NCBI GenBank assembly: GCA_033030425.1
Contig: JAUFSD010000018.1
Span: 930,001-994,000, forward strand
Source of the DNA: Verpa conica
Lineage: Eukaryota; Ascomycota; Pezizomycetes; Pezizales; Morchellaceae
Direction of reading: 5' to 3'
DNA: 64,000 nucleotides
Within the stretch, counting starts at the first letter, position 1. Each line of letters opens with the position of its first letter. Made by a program: the position numbers and the translations under genes. Shown in pieces: positions 7,377-63,098 of this stretch. The notes below the pieces were generated by a model. That model made no database searches and had not been told where the DNA came from. It saw only the letters and a list, made by a program, of their open reading frames with translations.

Positions 7377-9242
7377 TTACTCAAGGTGGCTCTTGGTCTC
7401 GGCAACACAACGCGCAGATTCCAACGTGGATGGATGGTCCTTCCCTAGTTCTTTCTCCCTCCCCTTCAACGCCCGCTGATGGAAATCCAGAGCCGCCGGA
7501 TATCTTTCCTGCAGGTAAAATATCGTTGCCATATTACTGACGGTATCGAGTGTGTCTGGATGCCCCCTAACCAGTGTTCTCTCCCTGCCGACTAAAGCTT
7601 TCCTATACCACTCGAGCGCCTTATCGAACTTCTCTTCCTTCTGGCAGACAGCTCCGAGGCTATCGTAGCAGGATATCATGCTGTTTAAAGTTGCAAGGGT
7701 TTCCGGGTTTTTCTTCCCCAGTGTCTTCTCTTTCACGTATAATACACGATTATACCATTCGAGTGCTTCCTCGAATCGACTCTGCTTATTGAGGAGGTCG
7801 GCGATGTTGCCAGTGGTCTCAGTTACGGATTTGTGCTCTTTGCCGAATATCTTCTCAAGGCCGGCCAAAGCTCGTCTATAGTGACTCAGGGCCTCCTCGT
7901 ATTCTCCCTCGTGGTATAGAACAAGGCCAATGCTGTTGAGGACCTGGGGGGTACGCATACCCTCCGCCCCGTTTGTCTTCTCGTAACTAGAGAGTGCCTT
8001 TCTATACCACTCGAGTGCGTCCCCATACTTCTTTTGACTATCGTGGATCATGCCAATGGTGTTGAAGACAGTAGGAGTGACCAAGTCGTCTTTTCCGTTC
8101 TGGATGGCCAGTATACGCTCACAGCGCTTGAGAGCATCGTCGTAGTCTTTTTTATACCACATGACGGTGGCCATGTTACTGAGGACCAAGAGGGTGAGTG
8201 GATGCTCCTTTCCAAAGCCGTTTTCGTGGCCAGTAAGCGATATATTATACCACTCGAGGGCTTCATCGTATTTCCCCTCATCCTGGAGAACAGTCGCGAC
8301 TCCGTTGGTAGCGGTAAGGGCTACAAGACTCCCTTGCTCTGTTTTCTGCCCCGGCTCAGTCCCAGTGCTAGATATCACCCGGGTGAAGCATTTAATAGCC
8401 TCGTCGTATTTCTCTTGGATCTTGAGGACCTCGGCTATGCTACAGACAACTTGAAGAGTGACTGGATGGTTCTTCCCAAACTCTCGTAGTGATTCCAGAC
8501 CTGCCAGCCCTCGTCTATACCACACAAGTGCCTCGTCATATTTATACTGATCCATAAAGAGCTCGCCGATATAGTTGATAGCGTCAAGAGTTTCTTTCCC
8601 CGGCTTCGCACCCCCACCGGTAACAACCCGCTTAAAGCACTGCAGCGACTCATCGTATCTTTTCAACCCCCGCAGAGCCACGCCTATATTCTTGACAACC
8701 TGAAGAGTAGTAGGATGCTGCTTCCCGAACTGCCGCAACGACTCATACCCCGCCAATGCCCTCTTATGCCACTCAAGAGCCTCCTCATGCCTATCCTGGT
8801 CCTCGAAGAGACTCCCAATATCGTCAATAGTAACAAGAGTCTCCGGATTCTCCTTCTTCGCCTGCTTCTTTGGTTTCTTCTCTTTACCGGCCAGCACCCG
8901 CTTATAGCACTCCAATGCCTCGTCGTACCTCTTCAACCGCTGAAGTACCGCAGCTATGTTTCCAACAACTATAAGTGTGCTATCGTTATCCTCCCCCGAT
9001 TTCCGCAATGACTCTGTCCTTGCCAAAGCGAGCTTATGCCATTCGAGCGCCTCAACATAGTCATCTTTTTCGCCGAAGAGCTCTGCGATGTTGTGGATGA
9101 TCATGATGGTGTAGGGGTGTGCCTCCCCTAGTGATTTCTCACGCTTGGATAGTTCTTGTTTTAGGCACTTTAGCGCTTCATCGTATTGACCACGGGTTTT
9201 GTATAACGCAACTATGTTGTCGACGTCGGTGATTGAGTCCAT
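7377..9242 (-). CDS. TPR-repeat protein 1 (kinesin-light-chain-like repeats, 621 aa)
   Basis: The protein is almost wholly tandem 42-residue tetratricopeptide repeats of the TPR_10/TPR_12 (kinesin light chain) type, with the core YDEALEWYKRAL followed by (G/A)xExxLGKEHPxTL and then a helix containing N(I/M)A. About 13 repeats can be counted. The frame stays open upstream to 9485, but I chose the ATG at 9242 (MDSITDVDNI) because the upstream 81 codons are low-complexity and lack TPR character. There is no signal peptide, membrane segment or nucleotide-binding domain. In fungi such repeats are often the ligand-binding part of NLR-like proteins, but no NB-ARC or NACHT lies upstream here. The C-terminal repeat (ALDFHQRALKGR...GKDHPS) is nearly the same as in the neighbour at 10060-11535, so the two genes are tandem paralogues. 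The partner is unknown. Confidence 0.85.
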   Translation of the reverse strand: MDSITDVDNIVALYKTRGQYDEALKCLKQELSKREKSLGEAHPYTIMIIHNIAELFGEKDDYVEALEWHKLALARTESLRKSGEDNDSTLIVVGNIAAVLQRLKRYDEALECYKRVLAGKEKKPKKQAKKENPETLVTIDDIGSLFEDQDRHEEALEWHKRALAGYESLRQFGKQHPTTLQVVKNIGVALRGLKRYDESLQCFKRVVTGGGAKPGKETLDAINYIGELFMDQYKYDEALVWYRRGLAGLESLREFGKNHPVTLQVVCSIAEVLKIQEKYDEAIKCFTRVISSTGTEPGQKTEQGSLVALTATNGVATVLQDEGKYDEALEWYNISLTGHENGFGKEHPLTLLVLSNMATVMWYKKDYDDALKRCERILAIQNGKDDLVTPTVFNTIGMIHDSQKKYGDALEWYRKALSSYEKTNGAEGMRTPQVLNSIGLVLYHEGEYEEALSHYRRALAGLEKIFGKEHKSVTETTGNIADLLNKQSRFEEALEWYNRVLYVKEKTLGKKNPETLATLNSMISCYDSLGAVCQKEEKFDKALEWYRKALVGRERTLVRGHPDTLDTVSNMATIFYLQERYPAALDFHQRALKGREKELGKDHPSTLESARCVAETKSHLE

Positions 9243-10059
9243 GGTTGCGCTCCCCCCTAGAGGTAGTTTAGTTTTTGTTTTTTTAATTTTAATTTTATTA
9301 AAGTTACTGGGTAAATAGTTATTACCATTCACTGAGCTGAAGAGGGTTTCTAGGTGGCAGATGGAGATAAGGCTTGAGTGTGCGGGGAGGGTAAATAGGT
9401 TGTTGGGGTCGCTTAATGGGGAATGATTGGCGCGATAGACCTGTTGGCGCGTCTGCTGCTTTACTGCTTGTAGGCTAGGTATCAAGGTTACTGTAGTGCG
9501 AGCATCTTACAGAACTGTTGTGTTTAATTCGATCACTCGGAATTTTAGTCTGTTATCAGGTTGTCACTCCGCGTGTTGAGTATTCCTTTGGGAAACTCTT
9601 TATGACACATTCACTCATCTTTCTTTGATGGCAATCTTGATGCATTCGATTGTATGTGCAAAATAACCGGGTGGGGCTCATAGCGTATCACTCGGCCCTT
9701 CTCAGCCAAACCCCCTCGATTAGTCGCGTATGTAACTGGAGGCTATAACGATATATGCCAAAAATTCACGCTCAAATCTGTTAATAAAAATAAAAATACA
9801 TAACGCAGTTCAAGCGGTATCAAACCATAAATGCAAATAACCAGTACTCCACTCTCCCTCCCACATGCTATTCCCCATTCTTTCACAGGCTCCCTAGTTC
9901 CCTCACTTTCTCTGAGTCCTCCCACACTCACTAGGAATACTTATACCTTAAGTCATAAAATAATAAAGAAAATTCGTCAAATAAGCTAAAAAGAAACTTG
10001 CCTGCAAGCGTAAAAGTAAACGATAAGACTTCCAACCACCATAAAGAGTAACCCAAACC
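9243..10059. other. Spacer between the two TPR genes
   Basis: This interval carries the upstream region of TPR gene 1 and the 3' flank of TPR gene 2. A T/A-rich stretch at about 9270-9300 lies just upstream of the chosen ATG. The in-frame extension of TPR gene 1 (9243-9485) is treated as 5' leader. No other gene is supported. Confidence 0.45.
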
Positions 10060-11535
10060 TCACCCAGAGCTCCAATATACCTGATAAGTACATTTCTGCC
10101 ATGTATCCTGCGCATCACCTTGGCTAAAAGGAAATGGATTACTTCCCGAGACCCCAAAACCCTTCTCAATATGGCTTTTAGCATCAGCAACGTAAAGCGC
10201 AGACTGTAACGCAGACGGGTGATCCTTCCCCAATGCCTTCACCCTCCCCTTCAACGCTCTCTGGTGAAAGTCAAGAGCCGCCCTATATCTCTCCTGCTGG
10301 TCAAAAATAGCCGCCATTTTACTCACGGTGTCGAGTGTTTCAGGGTGCCCCCTCCCTAGCGTCCTTTCCCTACTAGTCAAAGCCTTTCTATACCACTCGA
10401 GCGCCTTGTCGAAGTTTTTCTCCTTATCGAACGGGGCCGCAAAGTGATCATAGAGGGGTATCATTTTACTGATGACGGCGAGGGTGTCTGGGTGCTCTTT
10501 TCCTAGGAGCTTTTCTCTCCCAGTTAATGCACGATTATACCATTCGAGTGCCTCTTCGTAGCGGTGCTGTTTATTAAAGATATTGCCGATGTTGTAAACG
10601 GTGACAAGCGTGTCGCGGTGTCCTACACCGAGTGCCCTCTCTTTCCCGGCCAAAGCCTTCATATACCATTCAAGTGCCTTATCAAACCCCTCTTGCTTAT
10701 CGAGGGGGGCTGTGAGGCCATCGTAGCAGAGAACCATGTCACTGACCATTGCAAGTGTTTCCGGGTGCTCCTTCCCTAGAGCCTTCTCTTTCCCAGCCAA
10801 TGCACGCTTATACCATTCGAGAGCCTCCGCGTACCGATTCTGTTTCCTGAAAACATTACCGATGCTGGCGACCGTCTCGATTGTAGAGAGATGCTCCGAC
10901 TTCCCCGGTATCTTTCCGAACCCGACCAACGCCCGTTTATAATACTTCAAAGCCTCTGCGTACTTCCCATGATGGTACAGAACATCGCCAATAGTGTTAA
11001 CAAACTCAAGTGTCTCCACATTATCCCTCCCAAGCGCCCTCTCAAAACTACCCAAGACTCTTCCATGCCACTCAATTGTCTTTTCATAGTTTCCCTGGAG
11101 ATGATAAACCCCAGCCATGATGGTGCTAACTGTTATAACAAGCGGGTGGTCCCTCCCCAATCTGCCAACATCCAACACCCGCTTACAGCACTTGAGCGCC
11201 TCATCATACTTCTCCTGAAACCGGTAAGCGGTGGCCATGTTTGTAACAACAACCAGAGTGCTCTCGTTGTCTTTTCCGAATAGCTTTTCGTGCCCGGTTA
11301 GAGACCGTCGGTACCATACAAGTGCTTCTCTGTGTTTCCCTTGGTCTTGGAGGATGTTGGCGATTTTGTCGACGGTGATGATTGTTCGGCGGTTCTCTCT
11401 CCCGGGTGCCTCTTTTGGCTCGGATTCGAATGCGGAGAGAAGGTATTTGTAGCCTTGGATTGCTTCGTCGGAGCGTCCTTGGCTGTGCAGTTTTTTGGCC
11501 ATCAGGTCGATGGTGAAGAGGGTGAAGGGGTCCAT
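10060..11535 (-). CDS. TPR-repeat protein 2 (491 aa), tandem paralogue
   Basis: The protein contains about ten 42-residue kinesin-light-chain-type TPRs, with the core RYEEALEWYKRAL followed by GKEHPETL. The start is the ATG at 11535 (MDPFTLFTIDLMAKKL). A consistent 5' UTR intron lies directly upstream (minus-strand donor GTGAGT at 11598, acceptor CACAG ending at 11544, 55 nt), which argues against the ATG six codons further upstream. Its last two repeats match those of TPR gene 1 closely, including a KSH(I/L)E ending. This copy reads on for about 37 residues without repeat character, so it differs from gene 1 at the C-terminus. No effector, kinase, NB-ARC or membrane domain is attached. A scaffold or recognition role is an inference from the family. 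Confidence 0.84.
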   Translation of the reverse strand: MDPFTLFTIDLMAKKLHSQGRSDEAIQGYKYLLSAFESEPKEAPGRENRRTIITVDKIANILQDQGKHREALVWYRRSLTGHEKLFGKDNESTLVVVTNMATAYRFQEKYDEALKCCKRVLDVGRLGRDHPLVITVSTIMAGVYHLQGNYEKTIEWHGRVLGSFERALGRDNVETLEFVNTIGDVLYHHGKYAEALKYYKRALVGFGKIPGKSEHLSTIETVASIGNVFRKQNRYAEALEWYKRALAGKEKALGKEHPETLAMVSDMVLCYDGLTAPLDKQEGFDKALEWYMKALAGKERALGVGHRDTLVTVYNIGNIFNKQHRYEEALEWYNRALTGREKLLGKEHPDTLAVISKMIPLYDHFAAPFDKEKNFDKALEWYRKALTSRERTLGRGHPETLDTVSKMAAIFDQQERYRAALDFHQRALKGRVKALGKDHPSALQSALYVADAKSHIEKGFGVSGSNPFPFSQGDAQDTWQKCTYQVYWSSG

Positions 11536-11599
11536 GTTGAGGCCTGTGAGCAAACTGTATTAGTGTTTGCAGTATTGTTGAAGTTATTTCATACTCACC

Positions 11600-38512: not shown

Positions 38513-39008
38513 TCATGGATGATGCCGAATATTATATACCGTAACGGTGGTAGTGGTAGTGGTAGTGGTGGTAGTAGTATTCCTGTACACCGCATCGGCT
38601 CCCCAAGGGTATTGTATGTTATACATAGGGTATGTAACAAGTCGGTTGTCCTCTCCACTCTTGTATCCATCCTAATACATTTGTGAATAAAAGTCAGTAA
38701 TAATAATAAATTGAGATAAAAGGCCCTTAGAAATTCACATTGTCTCTTAGATGAGGGATTACCGTTATCTTTCGCCTCTTCCAAAACTTCCAGCCCTTAA
38801 AGAGAGCTAAGATAGCAGCAATAGCGCTAACAGTCCCGATAAGCACCCCAAATATACCAAAGAAATCGGCGTTCTTAGTATTAGACCCCAAAGTACCTGG
38901 AGCTGTTGTATCTCGCTTGGTGAGTGTGTTTAGAGTTGGTAGCCATCGATACTGGTTTGTGACTTCGGAATTAGAAATAGGGCGTGGTTGCGAGGTTTCT
39001 CTATCCAT
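38513..39008 (-). CDS. Small single-TM protein, divergent family member (134 aa)
   Basis: There are two exons on the minus strand: 39008-38763 and 38671-38513. The 91-nt phase-0 intron (GTAATC..ATTAG) lies right after the basic cluster, as in the cluster at 52-63 kb. Exon 1 gives a polar N-terminus, LTKRDTTAPGTLGSN matching the (L)IKRDxP...LGSN pattern of the family, a transmembrane helix at about 49-70 and the basic stop WKFWKRRK. Exon 2 (52 aa) differs: it has an eleven-threonine run encoded by an ACT/ACC microsatellite, then VTVYNIRHHP and a stop, and lacks the VQI core. It is therefore an outlier or early branch. It lies alone, about 14 kb from the cluster, on the opposite strand. The second exon is inferred from splice sites and an open phase-0 frame only. 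Confidence 0.6.
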
Positions 39009-52233: not shown

Positions 52234-52239
52234 GGAGAA

Positions 52240-52602
52240 AACCTTCTCAATGCCAGCACACTAGCCACAACACCTTTACAATACCCTCCAACACCAGGCA
52301 TAATCAGAGACATGGAACCTCTGCCCAAGGCAGCCTTTTGAGCGCATTCTACCCACTCTAGCCTAAGATTTAGGATAAAAAAATATAAATTAGATGAATA
52401 AAAGAATAAAATCTAGTGATAAGAGTGTGTACTCTACAATATTTTATTTAAACCTGACTAGAGCAGCCAAAGTGCACTGGTATGCTCAAGAAGTTACTTT
52501 GCCTAGTGGAAAATAGGGGAGGACAATGTGTGTCTTAGAGGTTTCTGGTGTTGGAGGGTATTCTAAAGGTGTTGTGGCTAGTGTGCTGGCATCGGAAAGG
52601 TT
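52240..52602. mobile_element. MITE with about 56-bp terminal inverted repeats, copy 1
   Basis: The arm at 52240-52295 (core TGCCAGCACACTAGCCACAA) is the inverse of 52547-52602 (core TTGTGGCTAGTGTGCTGGCA), with a few mismatches. The interior, around 52300-52520, is AT-rich and is shared with copy 2 at 58615-59425, for example the AGTGTGTAC and CAATATTTTATTTAA segments. At 363 bp it is non-autonomous. Copy 1 ends about 270 bp upstream of a small TM gene. Confidence 0.85.
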
Positions 52603-52870
52603 TTCCCGTGCTCTCCCGTTCCGGTATTCATAATTAGTTTCCCCCTCTGAAAAGTGAGATCGGCCCCAATTGACACAGGTCAATAAACCTAACCCTAACA
52701 CGAATAAAGCTGATCGAGTAAACCTCCAATACCTTACACGTTCCAACCTACAAAAAAAAAGGTCCTACACCCTCTACTATCCTAATATTCCCGATATCCT
52801 ACAACCCAGAAAACCTCCACACGCACCTACACCTCCCATACCCCCTAGTGCAGCATTGCTTACATAGAAA

Positions 52871-53301
52871 ATGCCCATCCGGGGAACACAAGTAATGACA
52901 CTGATCAAACGGGATCCAACACCGACAGCCTCTGACACCTTAAGTCCCAGCAGCAACAGTAACGATGACTTTACAATTACCGGTACTACACTTGCAGCGG
53001 TTTCTGTTGTGGTTGCTATCTTAACGCTTTTCAATACCTGGAACCTGTTGAAGTACTGCAGAAGGCGGAGATCGAGAACAAACATCGTAAGCCCACTAGT
53101 CTCCAGTAATTATCTAACAGATCATTCTATAGAAAACTTTGGGTTTTTTTCACTAATCATCGCGGGATACAGGACCGACTCAACGCCATGGAACCGAGTT
53201 TTCCGGCAGAGCAAATGCAACGTTATTATCACATAGAGAGCAGAATAAACGTACAAATCAATCATAACACCATCATCAATAACCTCACATACCCTCAGTA
53301 G
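52871..53301 (+). CDS. Small single-TM protein, cluster copy 1 (114 aa)
   Basis: There are two exons, 52871-53086 and 53173-53301, with an 86-nt phase-0 intron (GTAAGC..TACAG). Exon 1 (72 aa): MPIRGTQVMTLIKRDP, a Ser/Asn-rich spacer, FTITGTTLAAVSVVVAILTL starting the transmembrane helix (about 37-58), then NTWNLLKYC and a basic cluster RRRRSR. The positive charges suggest a cytosolic C-terminus and an N-terminus on the far side; there is no signal peptide. The juxtamembrane Cys of KYC is a candidate lipidation site (inference). Exon 2 (42 aa): DRLNAMEPSF, then MQRYYHIESRINVQINHNTI. It is shorter than in the sister copies, ending soon after the VQI core. Function unknown; I do not recognise the family. 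The exon assignment is supported by conservation of exon 2 among the copies. Confidence 0.75.
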
Positions 53302-53993
53302 AATACTACAACTTCGTAAACGATAAACCTATAAGTGCACGACAACATGGCCTATAAAATAGAGGCACGACTTCCCAGTTAGGTTATATTTATAGCAAAA
53401 TACACCATCTTTGGCTATATTAGTTTTCCTAGGGTGGGAATCTGTCGTAGCACAGTTGGGTTCTTTCTTAGTTATCAAAAGTATGTATGTTCGCATTTAT
53501 GAAAGACGCATGTATGGAAATTAAATTATACGTCTTTTTCAGAAAGCTTCTCTCAGAGTCCCGTTTTCCTGATAGGCTTTATGAACTTCCCATCATAGGA
53601 AATAAAAATTAGACAGCCAGTTGAGCTCTTAAGACCGGTTCATCTAGAGGGAAAAACTATGGTGGGCGCAGTCGACCGAGGGAATTATGGTATGACAGGA
53701 GCGCAGCGTTTGCCAATGCCTTGCGAAAACACGAGAAAATGCCATGATGTTGCTGAGGATATACCCTGTCTCCCCACAATTAGTTAGGGCACGCCAACAT
53801 CATAATTTATCACTCTTGAATAGTCAGTATCGTCCGAGTTTCAACCTATAGTATACTGTCGATGCCCTCGTCTATACATTCTTATACCTTTAAAAACTCT
53901 TAATTTTACACCCTAAACCCTGCATCCTATAAAGGCCACAATTTCTTTACATTCTCCACGTCTTCCATCTCATCCACGTTGTCAAAGTAGAGC
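53302..53993. other. Spacer between cluster copy 1 and a truncated copy
   Basis: AT-rich DNA with no gene. Its right end (about 53900-53990) resembles the leader of the copy at 61478, including CATCCTATAAA and a CT-rich stretch ending CATCTCAT, so homology with the family begins upstream of the coding start. Confidence 0.5.
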
Positions 53994-54060
53994 ATGCCAA
54001 TCTCAACGAAACAACCGCCAGTAAGCTCTGAAAGCTTATATTTTATTAGTATCAATAGTA
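53994..54060 (+). pseudogene. Truncated small-TM family copy, interrupted by palindromic repeat
   Basis: The leader and first codons match the copy at 61478 (MPISTKQPPV, then SSESLYFISINSSD), corresponding to the N-terminal region just before the transmembrane helix. Homology stops at about 54060, where the G-rich palindromic repeat block begins; no transmembrane exon, splice site or exon 2 follows. It is a 5' fragment disrupted by insertion or rearrangement. Confidence 0.6.
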
Positions 54061-54067
54061 GCGATAC

Positions 54068-54895
54068 CCTGCCTGGGGGATGCTTCCTATCGGGGACAAC
54101 CCTACCCGTTGGGGTATGTATGTTCTGGCCCGTTGGGGGGACCTGCCTATCGGGGGGACGTCCCCCCAACGGGCCAGCCTGGGAGCGGACAGGTAGGCAT
54201 CCCCTGAATGGGCTACCTGTTGGAGGGATACCAGTGTCCCTCATATGGGTAGGTGATAAATCATGGCTCAATTAATACAGGCATACCCTAAATAAATTAA
54301 GTTAGTGGTTAGAAGATATTGGCCTATCTTGAGATGTTTGGGGAATTTTATTTTATTTTTATACCATGAATTGTTGTCCCTGAAGACTCTTATATTGTAG
54401 GTACTTTTTATAGCAAAAAATAGTTATATATTATCTGATAAACATGGGTGCTTTATAAGCAATGTACTTGGTAAAATAGCAATGTACTAGGGTAAAGTAG
54501 CAACCTAGTAGGACAAAATAGCTGTCTACCCATTCAGGGGACGCAGTGTGTCCCTCCAATGGGTAGCCCATTGAGGGGATGCCCTATAAAACTGATTTAT
54601 TGCTACCCATTGGGGGGATATCCCTCCAACAGGCCGGCCCGTTCAGGGGACGTCCCCCCGATAGGCAGCGTCCCCCGAACGGGCCAGAACATGTACATCT
54701 CATATCTCCCATACGGATAAGGCAATAAATAAGATGACTCCATTGATACAGGTACACTATAAAAATAGGGATGAGATCTAGAATATATGAGCCTGTCTCT
54801 AATTTTTACCTTTATTCATTGTGCTTTTATACCATGTATTATTTTATCCGTGAGAGGTTTATGTTCTAGGTATTTTTGATAGCTAGAAATACTAT
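54068..54895. repeat. Degenerate direct duplication built on G-rich palindromes
   Basis: Two clusters, 54068-54245 and 54526-54690, are built from pieces such as CCCGTTGGGGGGACGTCCCC and CCTATCGGGGGGACGTCCCC, many of them palindromic (GGGGACGTCCCC). Each is followed by similar flanks (a CATATxxGxTAxGxxATAAAT-type segment, then TTTATACCATG), so the whole unit of about 480 bp is duplicated in tandem and then diverged. A related CAAGGGATGTCCCC piece occurs near 55147. No coding capacity. Confidence 0.65.
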
Positions 54896-55517
54896 ATAAA
54901 CTAGCGGAACTCATAATAGCGCTAAGACGTCCAAACAAAGTGTGGCTAGATAATCTTACTGTAAATAGTTTGGCAGTATTGTCTTTGCCACTCGCTATAG
55001 ACTTCGCTCGCGTTTCTTTGCTCGCTTGGGGATAAAAACTACCTTTGCTAGTTAGGTACTACGCCACTTCCTATTTCAACCTCTTAGCATCATTACAAGT
55101 CTCCCTAGTTTACTCTATGCGGTAGGTATTTGCATGTCATTACCCATACAAGGGATGTCCCCAACCGGTCAGAACAAACACATTTTTGGCAACCGAGTGG
55201 GGACCCTTTATGATTGATCAACTGGCGTCTCCCTTAGCGGAGGGCTTATAACAAAGTAGATATAAAAATAATTGACTGTTAAAGTAACTCTATAATTTAT
55301 AGCTTTGCGTAGAAGCTTAACAGGGTACTAATTAAGCTCTCCTCCGAAGTAGTTAGGAGGATACGTTAATTAGGACAGGTAGTATTAATACTTTAAGAGC
55401 GCTATTAATTCTCCTAGCTAGGGACAAATAGAAGATGCTCCTTTGGCCATTCCGTACTACCTGAGTAACCCTCATACCTTTTCTGATAATGGGATATAAG
55501 ATATAAGAATCTCTATA

Positions 55518-55708
55518 CAGTAGAAGCTCTCTATAAGAATACGTTCGGGACCGAGAATTTATGAGAATATTCTTATAGAGAAAGTATCCTAACCCAATAG
55601 GGTTATTTTAGGCGGAATACTTGCCAAATGTCGCCTAGTGCGGCTCTTCTTGGAGTTTTCTAATAAGAATATTCTTATAGAGAGTATTCTTATAGAGGGC
55701 TTCTACTG
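55518..55708. mobile_element. MITE with CAGTAGAAGC termini, pogo-like, TA target site
   Basis: The left end CAGTAGAAGCTCTCTATAAG is mirrored by the right end CTATAGAGGGCTTCTACTG-type sequence; TA flanks both sides (55516-55517, 55709-55710). Sub-terminal ATTCTTATAGAG repeats and the ACGTTCGGGACCG segment are typical of pogo/Tigger-derived MITEs. At 191 bp it is non-autonomous. Confidence 0.82.
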
Positions 55709-57217
55709 TATACTAATAAAGAAATCAAACCTAGCCCAGTCAATCTACCTAACCGAGCCGATCCTACCCAATTAATACCGCTAAAACGTATCGTTTCGTA
55801 ACTGTATTTCTCCTAAGGCCCAAGCGAATATTATATATCTTACTCGATCCCCCAGACCCCTACACACGCGCCTACCCCAAAATCACAGATCCGCGCTATA
55901 GTTATATGACTCTATTAGTTATAACTAGCTTAAACTATATAGTGAACGGCACCTATAGTAGGAAACCTACCAAGGAAAATAAAAGGCCGACAAGGCTGAT
56001 ATTCGGCAACTCAAAGCAGAGCCTAGCCGAATATTTTTGACTGAACGGGAAGAAAAGAAACACGGGCGGCCTAGGTCATGAAAGGCAAAATGGAAAAAGA
56101 CTCAAGTAATTGGTGGGCAGACTCGGTTGTTGTTTCATTTATAAACACATGTTCCGCTTATTAATCATCATCATACAGGTAAACCGAATAAAGTAATTTA
56201 GCTTCTCACTATATTTAATAAAACCCTGAGGGCGGCCGGTTCTCCATACAGTGTTTAACTAGGAAGGCGTGGCACCCTCAAAGAATACGCCCCAAGCAAG
56301 TGACAAGTCCGCGGGTATTCTAGGTCTCTGAGCTTGACTCGTCTGATCCACTTGCAGCCTTGCTAGTTATTTCCTGTGCAATTTCAGCAGCATATACACG
56401 TGAAGAATCGATTTTCTAGGCTCGGCGGAGGGGGGGGGAAGGCTTCTTTGACACAGTGCGGTAAAGAAGGATAAAAAAGAAAAATGATTTGGGTGACAAG
56501 GGGAGGGAAAAGAAAAAGTCGGCGTTGTTTATCGGGGGATAATATTGGTCCGCGAGACCAGGTATGTACATACATACCCAGCGATAAGGTGTGTCAACGG
56601 TGGCGGAGCACTTACGCATTTTCTTTATACCAAGTGATTTTATTGGTTTTTTTTATACTAAGAACTTATCTGCTTGGAAGTGCGCCGCGATGCGAACAGC
56701 GAACGAGCAAACCTTTACTATACCATGAAAAACAGTACCATGACATACCATGACTAACGAACATCACTACAACACAATTACCAGCTGGCAGAGTACTTGC
56801 AGATATTTGCTAGAAATTGAAAACTTATATTTGAAAGAACTAGAGATAACTCAGAAGGGGTTAGTTGTTGTGCTTAGCAAGTAAGCGGGGGTTATGGCAA
56901 GACGTTCGTACCTATGTACAATGAAGAACAGGCTAATTATTAGTGTACTATACAGAATGGGATAAGTATTTCTCAGGGCTCATTAATTATCATAGGTATA
57001 GGTGATAGTAAAAAATTAAAAGAATTAAGGGAATCTGAGAGAGGCCTTAATAGACCTCCCTTATTTTTTGCGACCGTAAAATCTTTATTATTTTCATATT
57101 TACTTTAAGTACTGTATCGCTTTGGTGCCGGGGTTTGATTGTCATGGTATGTCATAACAATCGGGAGAGGTTCAGAGCACCTGAAGAGGAATTAGGCGAA
57201 GTTGAGTCTCCCAAAGA

Positions 57218-57475
57218 GGTTGTCTGTTCACCCCCCTGCCAGTGCCAGTCGAGCCCCAAAGCGTTGTCTGCCCCCCCCTGCCCGTTGTCTGTTCACCCCT
57301 GCCCGTTGTCTGTTCACCCCTGCCCGTTGTCTGTTCACCCCCCCCACCAGTTCAGTCTCCGTTTTCTGTTAACTCCACCCCCACCAATTAAGTCCCCGTT
57401 TTCTGTTCACCCCCCCTGCCAGTGCCAGTTGAGCCCCAAAGGGGTTGTCTGTTCACCCTCCCTGCCAGTGCCGCT
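57218..57475. repeat. Pyrimidine-strand minisatellite, unit about 21 bp
   Basis: The unit CCGTTGTCTGTTCACCCCTG recurs head to tail, cleanest at 57280-57340, then in variant longer units with TGCCAGTGCCAG and GAGCCCCAAAG spacers. The plus strand is C/T-rich. An open frame through it (57135-57485) reads as CPLSVHP repeats, an effect of the repeat period, not evidence of a gene. Confidence 0.8.
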
Positions 57476-57689
57476 ACAGGGATAGGTCTTGGCCTACATA
57501 ACTGGTACCCAACGTAACATATTGTACCATTGTTCCGTATAATATTTTTCCCCCAGCGCGTACCTTAATTACACTTCTTACCTTCCAAAATTTTACACCT
57601 TCAGCTCTATCGACAAACAAAATCCCTACATCTTCTATACACTCGACATTCTTTACACGCCTACGCGCAACGCCCACTATTACTGAAAG

Positions 57690-58187
57690 ATGCCCATCCC
57701 AGGAATAGAAGCAAAAACACTCATAAAAAGGAACCCACCGGGAGCCTCTGAAGACTTGAGCCCTAGCAGCAGCAGCAGTAGCAGTAGCACCAACAGTAAT
57801 AATGCTTTTACTATTACTGGTACAGCCCTTGCCGCAGTTGCTGTTGTGGTTGCCATTTTAACACTTTTCGGTACCTTCAATCTGCTGAAGTACTGTAAGA
57901 AGAGGAGGCAGAGATCGAGAGTCAACGCCGTAAGTTTTCTTATCTTAAAGATTTCCAACAGGATATTCTATAGAAAGCTTTACAGTATTTGTACGTCTTG
58001 CTAATATTACTAACTACTAAAGAACTGGTCCGTTGGCATTACAGGGCCGAGCCCATTCTTTGCCGCAGAACGAGCCCAACGCCACTATCATACCGAGAGC
58101 GGAGGAATAAACGTACAAATCAGCTATAACAATACAATCGTACTCGTAAACACTAGACAGAATATAAGAGCAGCTTCGCTAGCTTAA
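57690..58187 (+). CDS. Small single-TM protein, cluster copy 2 (134 aa)
   Basis: There are two exons, 57690-57929 and 58023-58187 (93-nt phase-0 intron, GTAAGT..CTAAAG). Exon 1 (80 aa): MPIPGIEAKTLIKRNPPG, a spacer with an eight-serine run encoded by an AGC/AGT repeat, FTITGTALAAVAVVVAILTL (helix about 41-62), FNLLKYC and basic KKRRQRSR. Exon 2 (54 aa): NWSVGITGPSP, then QRHYHTESGGINVQISYNNT, then IVLVNTRQN. Its exon 2 is exactly 55 codons with the stop, the same length as in copy 62601, and they agree strongly after the intron, which is good evidence that both exons are real. The VQI core (about 111-113) with Asn at 117 is described as a possible RHIM-like element. Function unknown. Confidence 0.8.
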
Positions 58188-58614
58188 TACTTATATCACG
58201 AGTTCTGAATTTGCTACATTATCTTCTGTGGGAGATCTGCCCATTCTACCCGAAGATAGCTATCGGCATCACGAGTAGTACATATAATTATCTTTACGTG
58301 TTTGTTTAGTTTAGTGGTGTTTATGTACCGGTCAAATAAGGTTAACTTTTTTCTTTTGTATTGGTGAGGGGCGTCAAGTAATTGCGTGTATACTCTCGCA
58401 AGAAAGCTTTATTTCAAGGAGTTTCAGTTCCTTTTTTACAAAATATAAGCTTCATAAGTTTACATCCGTCATTCTACCTTCCGTTGTGTACTTTATGAGG
58501 CTATTATTTCCTCTAAAGAATACTATCCAAGACGTGGAGGCCCGGATTGGGCTTGTAATATCGCCCTATAGAGGCTTGGCCCATAACAGAACTGGGGCCT
58601 GATTATGAGGATGA
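58188..58614. other. Spacer after cluster copy 2
   Basis: AT-rich DNA between the stop of copy 2 and the nested MITE pair. Nothing was recognised. Confidence 0.4.
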
Positions 58615-58638
58615 AACCTTTCCAATGCCAGAATACTA

Positions 58639-59055
58639 CAGTCGTTCACGGCCGGACGGTGGACACGGTCGCACGGCGGACAGGGGTCATGCTTGGCGCG
58701 GACTATGGATAGGGTACCTAAAAAGATTGCCTGAAGGGGCTCAAAACTTACAGAATAAGCCAAAAAATTTGGCTACTTCTATGCCCCAAATAACACCACA
58801 AGTACCCCATCAATAGTCCTCCCAGTACCCTAACAATAGTCCTTCTGGTACCTTATCAATAGTCCGGCATAGTCTGACGTATCCTACCAATAGTCCGACA
58901 CCCATCAATAGTCCAGTACCCTATCAATAGTCCGGTACCCCATCAGTAATTCGGTACCCCCTCGATAGTCCTTTGAGTACCCTCTCGATAGTCCTGCCAA
59001 GCCCATAGCCCTGTCCGCCATCAGACCGTGTCCGCCGTCACCCCGTGAACGACTG
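58639..59055. mobile_element. Nested CAGTCGTTCAC MITE, TA target site
   Basis: CAGTCGTTCACGGCCGGACG at the left and the inverted form (CGTGAACGACTG) at the right define the ends, with TA at 58637-58638 and 59056-59057. Arms extend about 45 bp (GTGGACACGGTC against GACCGTGTCCGCC). The 417-bp element is longer than its relative at 39640 because it carries a minisatellite (58806-58990). No transposase frame. Confidence 0.83.
58806..58990. repeat. Minisatellite inside the nested MITE
   Basis: Units of about 18-22 bp of the form ATCAATAGTCCGGTACCCC repeat about nine times with variation (AGTCC and GTACC are constant landmarks). The array lies wholly inside the 58639-59055 element and explains its greater length than the 170-bp relative. 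Confidence 0.75.
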
Positions 59056-59425
59056 TAGTCACAATACCCTCCACCAAGCATAATCAGAGACACAGAAACC
59101 TCTGCCCAAGACACAGCCTTTAAAGCGTATTCTATCACTCTAGCCTAGGGTTCAGGATAACATAAAATATAAATTAGATAAATAAATAAAAGAATAAAAT
59201 TCAGTGCTAGGAGTGTGTACAGCTGGGACTCTACAGTATTTTATTTAAGTCTGACTAAAGTAGCTAAAGTGCGTTGGTATGCTCAAAAGGTTACCTTGTC
59301 TAGTAGAAAATAGGGGTTACCCTATTGTAGGGCCATGCGCGTTCTAGATAGAGATTCCTAGTTTTTTTTGGTGCTGGAGGGTATTCTAAAGGTGTTGTGG
59401 CTAGTGTGCCGGCATTGGAAAGGCT

Positions 59426-60215
59426 TTCTCGGCTTCCTCTTTCTCAGGTTTTTTTGTGGTATGGAACGAGTGAAAGTGCCAAGAAATAACCCTAGAGCGA
59501 TTGATTTCACGCACGAGTGGTAAAAAGCCTACTATCGAGCACGGCGCCAGATCGAACGCTTGGAAGGTGTGGAGTGAGGCTTGGGGATTCTGTGGGTTCT
59601 TGACAGAGCAATGACGACTGGCGAGCCCTTGTACAGCGTACGGTAAAAAAGATCGAGAAACCAGGGTCTGTTACCAGGGTATTTTGGCCAATCCTATTAC
59701 TAGAATCTTTGCCAAAAACCTAAAGAACGAATAGGAACGCTGATTCTCGTGTCTGGCGTTTCTAGATCCTTTTTACCGTTCGCTGTAATGCGCAACGAGG
59801 GTGATCTGTCTGGATGACCCAGTAAAAACTCTGAAGCGAGGTCTTGTTGGAGGTGGAGGCTATGCTTCGATCTATTCGCTGAGAGATAAATCTGTCGTCT
59901 GGGCATTACTTCAGCGAGTAGAGATAGAAAATTCCGCCAAGAAAAACTAAACTTAACCCATTGTCCTGTGGCCCATTGCCACGCCACGGCCAGATTAGAC
60001 CGCTTGATCACTGCCCACACTGAACCCCACGATTCACAGGAAATCACTCGGTGGGTTACTATACTTCCCTCCTCCTCACTTTCAACACATTACACCACCA
60101 GCGCTCCTACCGACAAATAACCCTTAGGTCCTTTGAAATTTCCTACAAACACTACACCCACAAAACACCACGTTACTTCACAATACCCTCTACGTACATC
60201 CCAACCCTAGAAAAA
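59426..60215. other. Spacer and leader of cluster copy 3
   Basis: No gene. The stretch at 60100-60215 is CA/CT-rich and is the leader of the next member. An open frame extends upstream of 60216 in the same phase to 60051, but the family N-terminus and the ATG at 60216 favour the later start. Confidence 0.45.
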
Positions 60216-60673
60216 ATGGCTACAACGTCCACGGGGCTAGACCTAGAATCGACAGGCTCTGATAGTTTACATTCCAGAAGCAGCAGCAACGGTAGCGACG
60301 GCTTTACAATTACTGGCACCACCCTTGCAGCAGTTTCTGTTGTGGTTGCTATCTTGACGCTTTTCAATACTTGGAACCTGTTAAAGTACTGTAGGAGGCG
60401 GAGACTGAGGATTAACACCGTAAGTTCCCTAGTACCCCGTAACCATCTGACAGGTCTATAGAACACCCTACGATACTTCCGAACTGGTAGAATACTGCTA
60501 ACAGCTGGATATAGAACCGATTCGACACCGACTCTATGGAGCCTGGCTCTCTGGCGGCGGAAATGCAACGTTATTATCACACCGAGAACGGAATAAACGT
60601 ACAAATAAACATCATCAACGGTCTCGTGCGCCCTGGGCAGAATAACCCCGTAAGAGCGATATACAATAATTAG
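60216..60673 (+). CDS. Small single-TM protein, cluster copy 3 (120 aa)
   Basis: There are two exons, 60216-60419 and 60515-60673 (95-nt phase-0 intron, GTAAGT..TATAG). Exon 1 (68 aa) has a different first stretch (MATTSTGLDLESTGSD) in place of the usual IPG..IKRDP, then the invariant FTITGTTLAAVSVVVAILTL (helix about 31-54), NTWNLLKYC and RRRRLR. Exon 2 (52 aa): NRFDTDSMEPG, MQRYYHTENGINVQINIING, then LVRPGQNNPVRAIYNN. The transmembrane and VQI sections are the best conserved, the extreme ends the least. The helix and intron position agree with the copies at 52871, 57690 and 62601. The start is less certain than in the others because an in-frame extension exists. Function unknown. Confidence 0.76.
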
Positions 60674-61477
60674 TATAAAATAACTAGTAAACACTATACT
60701 GATTACGGAATCGGTAAGTTTTGGGTAGGCGGCCACAAGGCGGCTCTGGGAAAGAAGGATGGAAAAGCCTTGGTGTGTTTTGAATGATCTCCCTGATTGG
60801 GTAACACTCGTTTGTCGGTTGGGTATGCCACCCTCCCAGCCACAGTTCTATTTGAAGTATTTTTTGTGGGGGTACATGCGAAATATTGATATGTAAAGTC
60901 ACTCTAAGTATGAGTATAGTTAAATTGTTTCTTTTGTCTTGGTTATTGGAATTATCTTTTTAAACCCATGGGAGCTCGTTGGTATAACATATATTTATGA
61001 ATGTATGTTCTTCAAAGGTCATTATCCCAATTGATCCCATGGGCTTTATAAGCTATAAATGTAAATAAAATCGAATATTTATGAATCTCGCATATGAAGA
61101 TTAAAAAGGTTACTTGTTTATTATAGTCCCAAAGATCATGAGTTTGTTAAGTTCTTAGTACTACTTAGCTATATAAGCTTTGAGGCTCGGTGTTTAGCTT
61201 ATCTAGCCTAAAGTGAAAGTTAGGGTGGCACCTCGGGTGACCCGAACTCTGAAGCGAGGTCGATTGGAGTCTCGGAAGGCGTGCGCTTCTAGGTCTTTGG
61301 GTAAGAAATTGATATGATCATTACAACTCTTAATTTATAGTATGCCCTTAACACTCACGTCAACAAATCCTTGCACCTCAACGAACTCGAAATTTATACA
61401 TACCCTATATTCTACATCCCGTATCCCCCATCCTATAAAAGTCCCACTTTTTCTACATACTCCGTGTCTCCCATCTC
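60674..61477. other. Spacer between cluster copy 3 and the degenerate copy
   Basis: AT-rich DNA. The right end carries a leader like that of other members, with CATCCTATAAAAG (61430-61442), a TATA-like box about 40 bp before the expected start. Confidence 0.45.
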
Positions 61478-61864
61478 ATATCAATCCCAGGGGTGGATTC
61501 CCCTGTCAAACAAGATCCACTACCAGTAACCTCTAAAATTTTAGACCCCATCAGTAGCAATAGTAGTAGCGGCTTTATTACTGCTAATACCGTCCTTGCA
61601 ATAGTTGCTGTTGTTTCTATTTTGACTCTTTTTAGCACCTGCAATCTATCAAAACACTGTAAGAGGCGGAGATCGAGAGCCTATACCGTAAGTCCTCTAG
61701 ATTTCAGCAACTATCTAGCAGATTGTGCCATAGAATATTTGGGATGGCACATCTTGCTGGAATTATACAGCAACTACTAACTATTATAGAATCATTTCAA
61801 CACCGACCATACGGAGTATCACGACCCGGTTATTTTTTATAAACAAATATACCATGTTATTTAG
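61478..61864 (+). pseudogene. Small single-TM family copy, degenerate (start lost, exon 2 eroded)
   Basis: Exon 1 (to 61687) clearly belongs to the family: SSNSSSGFITANTVLAIVAV, VSILTLFSTCNLSKHC, KRRRSR, then GTAAGT at the usual phase-0 position. The intron runs to 61789 (TTATAG) and a short second exon to a stop at 61862-61864 begins NHFNTDHTEYHD, like NRFDTD in copy 3, but loses the QR[HY]YH and VQI parts. At the place of the family ATG the codon is ATA (61478), and the only alternative in frame is a GTG at 61493. I therefore treat it as a decaying copy, though use of a non-ATG start cannot be excluded. Confidence 0.68.
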
Positions 61865-62600
61865 CTAATTGATATATCTTAGCGTACATATTTAGCTTAA
61901 ATTTGATGCTTGACGGATGAAAAATTAAGTATACTATCAATGATACGTTCTTATCAAGCAGCTAGATTTATATTCTCCCAAGAAAAACTTTATCTCACGA
62001 GACTTTATTTCCTCAAACTTTGTCCGTTGTAAATGTATCTAGAAATATTGCGAGCCATATTCGCGTAGCGATGATGAAGACTCCCTCTTGTGTATGATTA
62101 CAAAAGGCTTGGCGCTGATTGTTTAGTGACGACGACCTGATCTACTCCTCAATTATCCACTCCAACATCCACCACGGTTAAAATTTCTGTGAGGCGGATT
62201 TGTTAAATCCTCACTCTTCCCAGTTATTGTCCCAGCGCCGAGGAAGGGAATCGACTGGCCCTCTGTTTGGACCGAATAGCGCCACAGCTGCGGGTCGTCT
62301 GCAGGAGTCGGGAATAGTCTTGGCCTGCAGCAGCGCCTCCAGCGTCACTGTCCCACCACCGGTCATCGTTCGTTTAAGCCCACATACTTGGCTCAAAATG
62401 GCACTGAAAGCACCAGCTATCACTCATTACCTCTCCCTTTCCCCCCGCCTCCGTCCCCAAAATCTCCTTACACCCTCATCTCCCATCAGCAAACAAAATT
62501 CCTACAGTATCTATAGCCTCTACAAACCCTACATTTCATAAAAATCCCCCACGTTCTTCACACCTAAAATCCTCTATATCGTCTGTACTGTCACAAGAAC
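61865..62600. other. Spacer before cluster copy 4
   Basis: No gene. An open frame at 62200-62541 is followed by a CT-rich leader ending just before 62601; it has no signature of its own and is taken as upstream sequence. Confidence 0.4.
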
Positions 62601-63098
62601 ATGCTCCTTCCAGGAATAGAAGAAAAAAAGTCCATCAAGCGGGACTCACCATCAACACCCCCTGGAATCTTGGGCTCTAACAGCAACGGTGCCGATGGAT
62701 ATACAATTACCGGCACCGTCCTTGCAGCAGTTGCTGTTGTGGTTGCCATTTTGACGCTTTTCAGTACTTGGAATCTGTTGAGGTACTGTACGTGGAGGCG
62801 GCGACGGAGGTCAAGAGTCAACGACGTAAGTCCTCTAGCCCTCAAAAACTATTCAATAGGCTATCCTATACGAAAACTTGAAGCCTTTACATGTCTTACT
62901 ATAGCAGTGCTAATCATTACCACAAACTAACAGAACCGATCTAGTGTCGATACTACAGGGCCAAATCCACTCTTCCCTACAGGACAAATTCAACGTCACT
63001 ACCACGCTGAGAACGGAGGAATAAGCGTGCAAGTTAACTACAGCAATACGATCGTACTTGTATACCCTAGACAGAACATGACGCTGGGTTCGGACTAA
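62601..63098 (+). CDS. Small single-TM protein, cluster copy 4 (129 aa)
   Basis: There are two exons, 62601-62825 and 62934-63098 (108-nt phase-0 intron, GTAAGT..TAACAG). Exon 1 (75 aa): MLLPGIEEKKSIKRDSP, TPPGILGSNSNGADG, then YTITGTVLAAVAVVVAILTL (helix about 34-58), TWNLLRYC and a strongly basic RRRRRSR. Exon 2 (54 aa): NRSSVDTTGPNPLF, QRHYHAENGGISVQVNYSNT, then IVLVYPRQNMTLGSD. The VQV core lies at about 107-109 with Asn at 113. Its N-terminus shares LGSN with the outlier at 38513, so this may be the copy closest to it. The stop codon overlaps a CGGACTAATTTGTCCG palindrome that is repeated 47 bp further on, so the 3' end may be shaped by a repeat. Confidence 0.8.

What the first reader, a model, noticed from the sequence alone, without database searches (positions are those of the whole stretch)
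52871..63098. Unrecognised cluster of two-exon genes for tiny single-pass membrane proteins
Four intact copies (52871, 57690, 60216, 62601) and two degenerate copies (53994, 61478) lie head to tail on the plus strand within 10 kb. All intact copies have the same plan: polar N-terminus, near-invariant helix (F/Y-TITGTxLAAVxVVVAILTL), KYC or RYC, basic cluster, phase-0 intron, then a 42-54 residue tail with QR[HY]YHxE...GIxVQ[IV]. Exon 2 was found only by splicing; its conservation across copies, and the equal 55-codon length in two, supports real selected genes. Basic residues after the helix predict a cytosolic tail. Multi-copy, fast-diverging ends and repeat-rich surroundings are typical of accessory functions such as self/non-self recognition or defence, but that role is inference.
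Basis: partly seen in the sequence, partly recalled or inferred. Interest (0 to 1): 0.88.

Follow-up and report, generated by a model that had tools for sequence, protein, structure and literature searches.

The report
Truffle-clade family of tiny membrane proteins
A fungus, probably of the truffle and cup-fungus group, carries an undescribed family of about twenty tiny genes, each making a one-helix membrane protein whose inner tail resembles the sticky signalling motifs that trigger cell death in other fungi, although no matching receptor has been found.

Summary
Four intact two-exon genes and two broken copies lie head to tail at 52871-63098. They are real genes: introns are GT-AG and phase 0, synonymous changes dominate, and one paralogue elsewhere lacks the intron with its frame kept. 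The array runs on to two more copies beyond the window. A diverged member lies in the window at 39008-38513 (-). Others sit on C1, C2, C3, C5, C11 and C16: 21 loci with both parts. Relatives exist in Choiromyces venosus (Pezizales). The 16 proteins tested are predicted N-out/C-in. Pfam shows no family above cut-off.

New here: the cytosolic tail carries an [N/S/T]-phi-Q-phi core (16 of 21 tails; about 1 expected after shuffling). It resembles the G-phi-Q-phi-G core of fungal PP and animal RHIM amyloid signalling motifs, without the glycine before it. Best guess: membrane-anchored proteins that cluster through this tail, perhaps damaging the membrane. Against it: no receptor with the motif was found (NLR N-termini were only partly readable), every member is at least 55 kb from any detected NLR domain, and amyloid formation is untested. 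The gene family is solid; the function is inference.

The parts
52871..53086 (+). copy 1, exon 1: polar N-terminus, membrane helix, KYC and basic cluster (72 codons)
53087..53172 (+). copy 1, phase-0 intron (GTAAGC...TACAG)
53173..53301 (+). copy 1, exon 2: cytosolic tail with RINVQINHN core (42 aa + stop)
53891..53973 (+). upstream block shared with the block before 61478 (72% identical), probably promoter
   Evidence: promoter role is inference
53994..54068 (+). truncated copy: start and about 25 codons, then unrelated GC-rich inverted-repeat DNA
57690..57929 (+). copy 2, exon 1 (80 codons)
57930..58022 (+). copy 2, phase-0 intron (GTAAGT...TAAAG)
   Evidence: acceptor chosen by the conserved frame
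58023..58187 (+). copy 2, exon 2: tail with GGINVQISYNN core (54 aa + stop)
60216..60419 (+). copy 3, exon 1 (68 codons)
60420..60514 (+). copy 3, phase-0 intron (GTAAGT...TATAG)
60515..60673 (+). copy 3, exon 2: tail with GINVQINIIN core (52 aa + stop)
61478..61850 (+). pseudogene copy: no start codon, degraded helix and tail; end approximate
62601..62825 (+). copy 4, exon 1 (75 codons)
62826..62933 (+). copy 4, phase-0 intron (GTAAGT...AACAG)
62934..63098 (+). copy 4, exon 2: tail with GGISVQVNYSN core (54 aa + stop)
38513..38671 (-). diverged member, exon 2 (tail with YNIQY and a T-run); intron 38672-38762

Best explanation
This is a multigene family, so far seen only in this fungus, in Choiromyces (Pezizales) and in one unnamed 1.8-kb contig, of small membrane proteins (92-151 aa in the 15 own-genome proteins measured). 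A short, variable, polar N-terminus should face outward. One hydrophobic helix crosses the membrane and is followed by a basic stretch. A separate exon supplies a cytosolic tail whose most constant part is an [N/S/T]-phi-Q-phi beta strand with N/T/S-rich neighbours. Inferred mechanism: the tail works like the PP/RHIM class of amyloid signalling motifs. Seeding by a matching tail, on another paralogue or on a receptor still to be found, would stack the tails in the cytosol and cluster the attached helices, perturbing the membrane or building a signalling platform, most likely in regulated cell death or non-self response. Shown: gene structure (from sequence, no transcripts), selection, family size, predicted topology, conserved core. 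Inferred: amyloid assembly, clustering, death or defence role.
For: GT-AG, phase-0 intron directly after the basic cluster in 20 of 20 intron-bearing models; an intronless paralogue reading in one frame. dN/dS below 1 in every pair of seven copies that gave a value. One helix with 0-1 K/R before and 4-9 after in 16 of 16 proteins. Core [NST]-phi-Q-phi in 16 of 21 tails versus mean 1.04 and maximum 6 in 5000 shuffles, and 7 of 10 with one tail per clade (mean 0.54, maximum 5). The 12 diverged own-genome members were found by search hits lying wholly or mostly in the helix exon, and 9 of 12 of their tails carry the core. PP/RHIM core is G-phi-Q-phi-G, with N/Q conserved (PMC7885112, passages). 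Membrane part first and motif last is the order in HET-S and HELLP (same passages).
Against: Tail-bearing queries of the whole genome gave no convincing hit outside the family (one chance-level hit, E 2.55, in a 681-aa frame was not pursued), nor did a strict DNA pattern. All 21 members are at least 55 kb from each of 79 NACHT/NB-ARC hits, while known effectors and receptors are often neighbours (PMC9815663, passage). The glycine before the core is absent; the Pfam RHIM model does not match. HeLo and HeLo-like domains already exist, within 1.5 kb of 23 of 79 NLR domains. AlphaFold2 gives the Choiromyces tail no strand and low confidence. Four own-genome tails and the Choiromyces tail lack the exact core. 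One-per-clade beta alternation is only weakly above shuffles (p 0.017). The core was defined after looking; I chose exon-2 frames in diverged members by eye.
Confidence: 0.33

Rival explanations
1. Ordinary lineage-specific small membrane proteins. The tail core is a short linear motif for sorting or for binding one folded partner, and nothing polymerises.
For: No partner carrying the same motif found; no NLR linkage; strong purifying selection on the helix fits a housekeeping-like membrane role; no strand in the model of the Choiromyces tail.
Against: Several arrays, pseudogenes and fast-changing ends are unusual for a housekeeping gene; the core alternates polar and hydrophobic residues, as amyloid signalling motifs do.
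Confidence: 0.32
2. Surface or hyphal-fusion recognition factors: the variable polar N-terminus is the recognised part and the tail only transmits or anchors.
For: Predicted N-out topology. N-termini diverge faster than the helix: dN/dS 0.51, 0.54, 0.51 and 0.24 in the four pairs printed, against 0.00, 0.29, 0.18 and 0.14 for the helix of the same pairs.
Against: N-termini are short (4 to 51 residues before the helix) and low in complexity; the tail core is kept in most members while the N-termini differ.
Confidence: 0.14
3. Membrane-permeabilising small proteins (holin- or viroporin-like) that act by expression level alone; the LFKGWKxWKK stretch binds membrane and the tail is a brake.
For: Small size, conserved helix with spaced small residues and W/K-rich edge.
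Against: Many paralogues kept under purifying selection; no toxicity data; the conserved core in a separate exon needs its own reason.
Confidence: 0.1
4. Repeated non-coding segment or chance open frames.
For: Repeat-rich surroundings; no transcript data were available.
Against: 10 synonymous against 0 non-synonymous changes in the helix of copies 1 and 3, conserved splice layout, homologues in Choiromyces.
Confidence: 0.01

Closest known systems
PP/RHIM amyloid signalling motifs (HELLP-PNT1 of Podospora anserina; RIPK1/RIPK3)
   Same: phi-Q-phi core, N/S/T-rich neighbourhood; for HELLP also the C-terminal position behind a membrane-active part
   Different: N/S/T in place of the G before the core (and N or S after it in 9 of 16 tails); no HeLo-like domain; permanent membrane helix; no NLR partner or neighbour found; Pfam RHIM does not match
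HET-S / HeLo-domain effectors with HRAM motifs
   Same: N-terminal membrane part plus C-terminal assembly motif, in principle
   Different: No HeLo domain matched in the small proteins scanned; HeLo and HeLo-like hits on the same contigs are at least 105 kb away
NLR N-terminal motifs NLR19 (genus Tuber) and NLR34 (Ascomycota) of PMC9815663
   Same: Found in related fungi (NLR19 in Tuber) and listed in that paper's table with 0 effector proteins
   Different: Their sequences are in figures and supplements I could not read; a match is only a lead
Hypothetical proteins L873DRAFT_1809446 and L873DRAFT_1100779 of Choiromyces venosus
   Same: Same plan: helix with ALFKGWKFWK, basic stretch, N/T-rich tail (VNTFNTTINNQINSY)
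   Different: Tail core is NNQI rather than N-phi-Q-phi

Membership tests
PP/RHIM amyloid signalling motif | G-phi-Q-phi-G core | tested here: not met
   Core is [NST]-phi-Q-phi, followed by N or S in 9 of the 16 own-genome tails that have it, by other residues in 7, never by G. Pfam RHIM PF12721: two sub-threshold hits in the genome, neither in this family
PP/RHIM amyloid signalling motif | forms self-seeding fibrils | not testable with these tools
   Needs peptide and in vivo work; only pattern tests were run
PP/RHIM amyloid signalling motif | same motif at the N-terminus of a receptor, often a neighbouring NLR | tested here: not met
   No convincing non-family hit with tail-bearing queries; none of 82 strict pattern hits lies within 4.7 kb of an NLR domain start; all 21 members at least 55 kb from an NLR domain. 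Upstream regions were read for only 18 NB-ARC and 6 of 61 NACHT hits, and a motif of low identity would be missed
HeLo / HeLo-like cell-death effectors | HeLo (PF14479) or HeLo-like (PF17111, named PigL_N in the library) domain | tested here: not met
   No such match in Pfam scans of eleven proteins; genome hits lie elsewhere
Single-pass N-out/C-in membrane protein | one hydrophobic span without cleavable signal, positive charge on the C-terminal side | tested here: met
   16 of 16 proteins by hydropathy and charge count; signal cleavage not tested
This family (helix exon + phase-0 intron + tail exon) | common gene structure | tested here: met
   20 of 20 intron-bearing models; one member, C16:444096, intronless in frame

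The most novel reading that the evidence does not exclude
A minimal class of amyloid-controlled membrane effector: one permanent membrane helix plus a new amyloid signalling motif family ([N/S/T]-phi-Q-phi, related to PP/RHIM by function or descent), expanded in Pezizales and possibly the missing effector partners of truffle NLR motifs that have none.
Probability: 0.22. Interest if true: 0.82.

Novelty: new variant of a known kind. Interest (0 to 1): 0.55.

Why it matters
Twenty-one loci in one genome encode a family that Pfam did not recognise and that intron-blind gene calling reads wrongly (P0002 seems to run into the intron). If the tail polymerises, it would show that a bare membrane helix plus a short motif is enough for amyloid-controlled signalling, and it would suggest effectors for truffle NLR motifs that lack one. 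If not, it is still a clean example of a fast-evolving, lineage-restricted small-membrane-protein family.

Tried and rejected
Rejected: non-coding repeat. Rejected: relation to Pfam families by weak hits (Plasmodium Vir, AGH, Trp_oprn_chp, DUF3318, SLATT_fungal and others, all below cut-off). Rejected: CAG|GGC acceptor in copy 2 (frame shift). Not supported: NLR partner with the same motif. Led nowhere: single-copy protein search with copy 2; AlphaFold2 of the Choiromyces relative, mean pLDDT 54, helix 26-62 and a low-confidence helix 84-97 in the tail; paper searches (listings only) for small transmembrane, Choiromyces, Pezizales or amyloid-signalling proteins, whose listed titles and abstracts show no description of this family. 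Rows dropped before counts: C8:1777679 (judged by eye a generic mucin-like protein), C16:1133242 (E 2.55, not looked into), C19:18424, C16:1443723 and C25:838440 (helix-like hit, tail not modelled), C16:446260 and C3:2222756 (tail exon only), and the two broken window copies. C16:444096 (intronless) is among the 21 loci but not among the 21 tails; P0001 is the 21st tail there, P0003 was not scored. C18:995386 is counted although its tail stops early. An earlier run with 22 tails gave the same picture for alternation. Papers: PMC9815663 (one section and passages), PMC7885112, PMC12881547, PMC12261475 and PMC4986451 (passages only).
Full report
What is there. The window is C18:930001-994000 of a 45.8-Mb assembly in 25 contigs. 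The array continues past the window's end with copies at C18:995386, whose tail stops early, and C18:997445, intact. Translated searches of the whole genome gave more members: three on C16 (444096, 449557, 451262), and twelve diverged ones on C18 (inside the window, 39008-38513, minus strand), C1 (two), C2, C3 (three), C5 (three) and C11 (two). That makes 21 loci with a helix part and a tail part. The tool calls its counts lower bounds. Hits with only one part, or doubtful ones, were left out (listed under tried and rejected).

Are they genes? In 20 of 20 intron-bearing models the intron begins GT, ends AG, is phase 0 and follows directly on the basic cluster (14 models, 6). Most donors are GTA-type; C5:959768 has GTCAGT and copy 2 has the acceptor AAG. 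I picked splice sites by eye to keep the conserved frame, so the phase is partly by construction; that a GT in phase 0 follows the basic cluster in each is not. The member at C16:444096 has no intron and reads from helix to tail in one open frame, which supports the splice model independently. Among seven copies (the four intact window copies, C18:995386, C18:997445 and C16:449557), dN/dS for exon 1 is 0.18-0.55 in 21 of 21 pairs, and for exon 2 0.17-0.68 in the 15 of 21 pairs that gave a value; many dS values are above 1, so the ratios are rough. For the 32-codon helix region, copies 1 and 3 differ by 10 synonymous and 0 non-synonymous changes. Between those two copies exons are 75-76% identical over aligned bases, the intron 68% and the flanks 43-45%. 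No transcript data were available.

What do they encode? Each of 16 proteins tested (14 models, the intronless one and Choiromyces P0001) has one hydrophobic span with 0-1 K/R in the 15 residues before it and 4-9 in the 20 after, so the short polar N-terminus should lie outside and the tail in the cytosol. The helix and its edge are the most conserved part: G.V....AI...LALFKGWK.WK in diverged members, [FY]TITGT.LAAV.VVVAILTLF.T[WF]NLL[KR]YC in the window cluster. Pfam has nothing above cut-off for eleven members and relatives.

Relatives elsewhere. An alignment search of 5.8 billion proteins gave two hits: a 127-aa hypothetical protein of Choiromyces venosus (E 3.0e-9) and an unnamed 128-aa prediction on a 1.8-kb contig (source 'lgn', E 6.8e-9) that seems to run into the intron. 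The Choiromyces protein found a second paralogue at 88% identity. Choiromyces is in Tuberaceae, Pezizales. The window's fungus is therefore probably a member of Pezizales; the species was not identified.

The tail. Window copies share RINVQINHN, GGINVQISYNN, GINVQINIIN and GGISVQVNYSN. The diverged members were drawn in by search hits lying wholly or mostly in the helix exon, yet nine of their twelve tails read NINIQIYS, NLNIQVFP, NLSIQVFS, NLNIQFIQ, SFNIQIHA, HITIQMNS, TTNIQMNT, NNNIQLNS and YNIQYPW. The core [NST]-phi-Q-phi occurs in 16 of 21 tails (20 from this genome, one Choiromyces), against a mean of 1.04 and a maximum of 6 in 5000 composition-keeping shuffles, and in 7 of 10 when one tail per clade is used (mean 0.54, maximum 5). 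Longest polar/hydrophobic alternation is also above shuffles: 6.38 against 5.07, 0 of 2000 shuffles; one per clade 6.1 against 5.05, p = 0.017. The core was defined after looking, the paralogues are related, and I picked exon-2 frames in the diverged members. The tails of C2, of both C11 members and of the early-stopping 995386, and the Choiromyces tail, lack the exact core; the C11 tails have YHISI instead. The residue after the core is N or S in 9 of 16.

Mechanism. Fungal PP motifs and animal RHIMs share the core G-phi-Q-phi-G, PP motifs with flanking N residues, and PP motifs sit at the C-terminus of cell-death proteins such as HELLP that move to the cell membrane region (PMC7885112, passages; PMC12881547, passages). 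The present tails have the same phi-Q-phi centred on Q, with N/S/T before it, and often N or S after it, where PP has G. I therefore propose that the tail is an assembly motif that works like PP/RHIM, and that its stacking clusters the attached helices. This is inference. The family fails the membership test for PP/RHIM on the glycines and on the Pfam RHIM model.

Results against it. A receptor carrying the same motif should exist. Tail-bearing queries against the whole genome gave no convincing hit outside the family. One chance-level hit, C16:1133242 in a 681-aa frame (E 2.55), was not looked into. The strict DNA pattern for N-[IV]-Q-[IV]-[NS] gave 82 hits against 62 for the reversed control; three are window copies of the family, and none lies within 4.7 kb of an NLR domain start (the nearest, C20:973064 on the minus strand, is downstream of a plus-strand NACHT). 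Upstream regions of 18 NB-ARC hits and 6 of 61 NACHT hits were read. A profile of the tail motif found nothing convincing in the 18 and in one of the six; the other five were read by eye. Many show a frame that by recall resembles the SesB-type hydrolase domain. All 21 members are 55 kb or more from the nearest of 79 NACHT/NB-ARC hits (some NACHT hits are below the curated cut-off). The genome has 62 matches to PF17111 (HeLo-like in PMC9815663, PigL_N in the library) and 16 to HeLo, within 1.5 kb of 23 of 79 NLR domains, so cell-death domains built into or next to NLRs are already present. AlphaFold2 of the Choiromyces protein shows only the helix with moderate confidence.

Known work. Wojciechowski and co-workers (PMC9815663, one section and passages) list NLR N-terminal amyloid-like motifs with no known effector, among them one restricted to Tuber (NLR19) and one in Ascomycota (NLR34), found together in five Tuber melanosporum sequences. 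The motif sequences were not readable here, so a link is only a lead. The listings of my paper searches show no description of this protein family.

Verdict. Real, undescribed, lineage-restricted gene family: near certain on sequence evidence. Amyloid-like assembly through the tail: plausible, about one in three. Role in cell death or non-self response: lower, inferred from resemblance and from array-type evolution.

Noticed in passing
window 7377-11559 (-): Two neighbouring proteins made almost wholly of TPR_10/TPR_12 repeats (709- and 499-aa open frames), of a kind that fungal NLRs carry at the C-terminus, but without a nucleotide-binding domain in the same open frame.
   Followed up: no
window 52237-52605 and 59369-59430: 61-nt inverted repeat (93% complementary, 247 nt apart) with a third copy 7 kb away: looks like a small inverted-repeat transposon (MITE) between the genes.
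   Followed up: no
window 54072-54696: GC-rich inverted-repeat block directly after the truncated copy; nearly the same sequence follows the C5:1886287 member (L081), so a dispersed repeat sits next to two family members.
   Followed up: no
window 57221-57480 and 58780-59000: Runs of short imperfect repeats (CCCCTGCCCGTTGTCTGTTCA-like; ATCAATAGTCC-like) between copies.
   Followed up: no
G000 C16:451262 (-), L027: One member's tail appears by eye to carry the tail motif twice (RNFQIRYSTTI and LTTINDIYV), like the repeated motifs of some amyloid effectors.
   Followed up: partly
exon 2 of C3:2227315, C3:2225181, C5:959768, C1:272489 and window copies 1 and 3: These 6 of 20 tails share a second piece near the start of exon 2: SMESG, SIESG or AMESG in the four diverged members, AMEPS and SMEPG in the two window copies.
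   Followed up: partly
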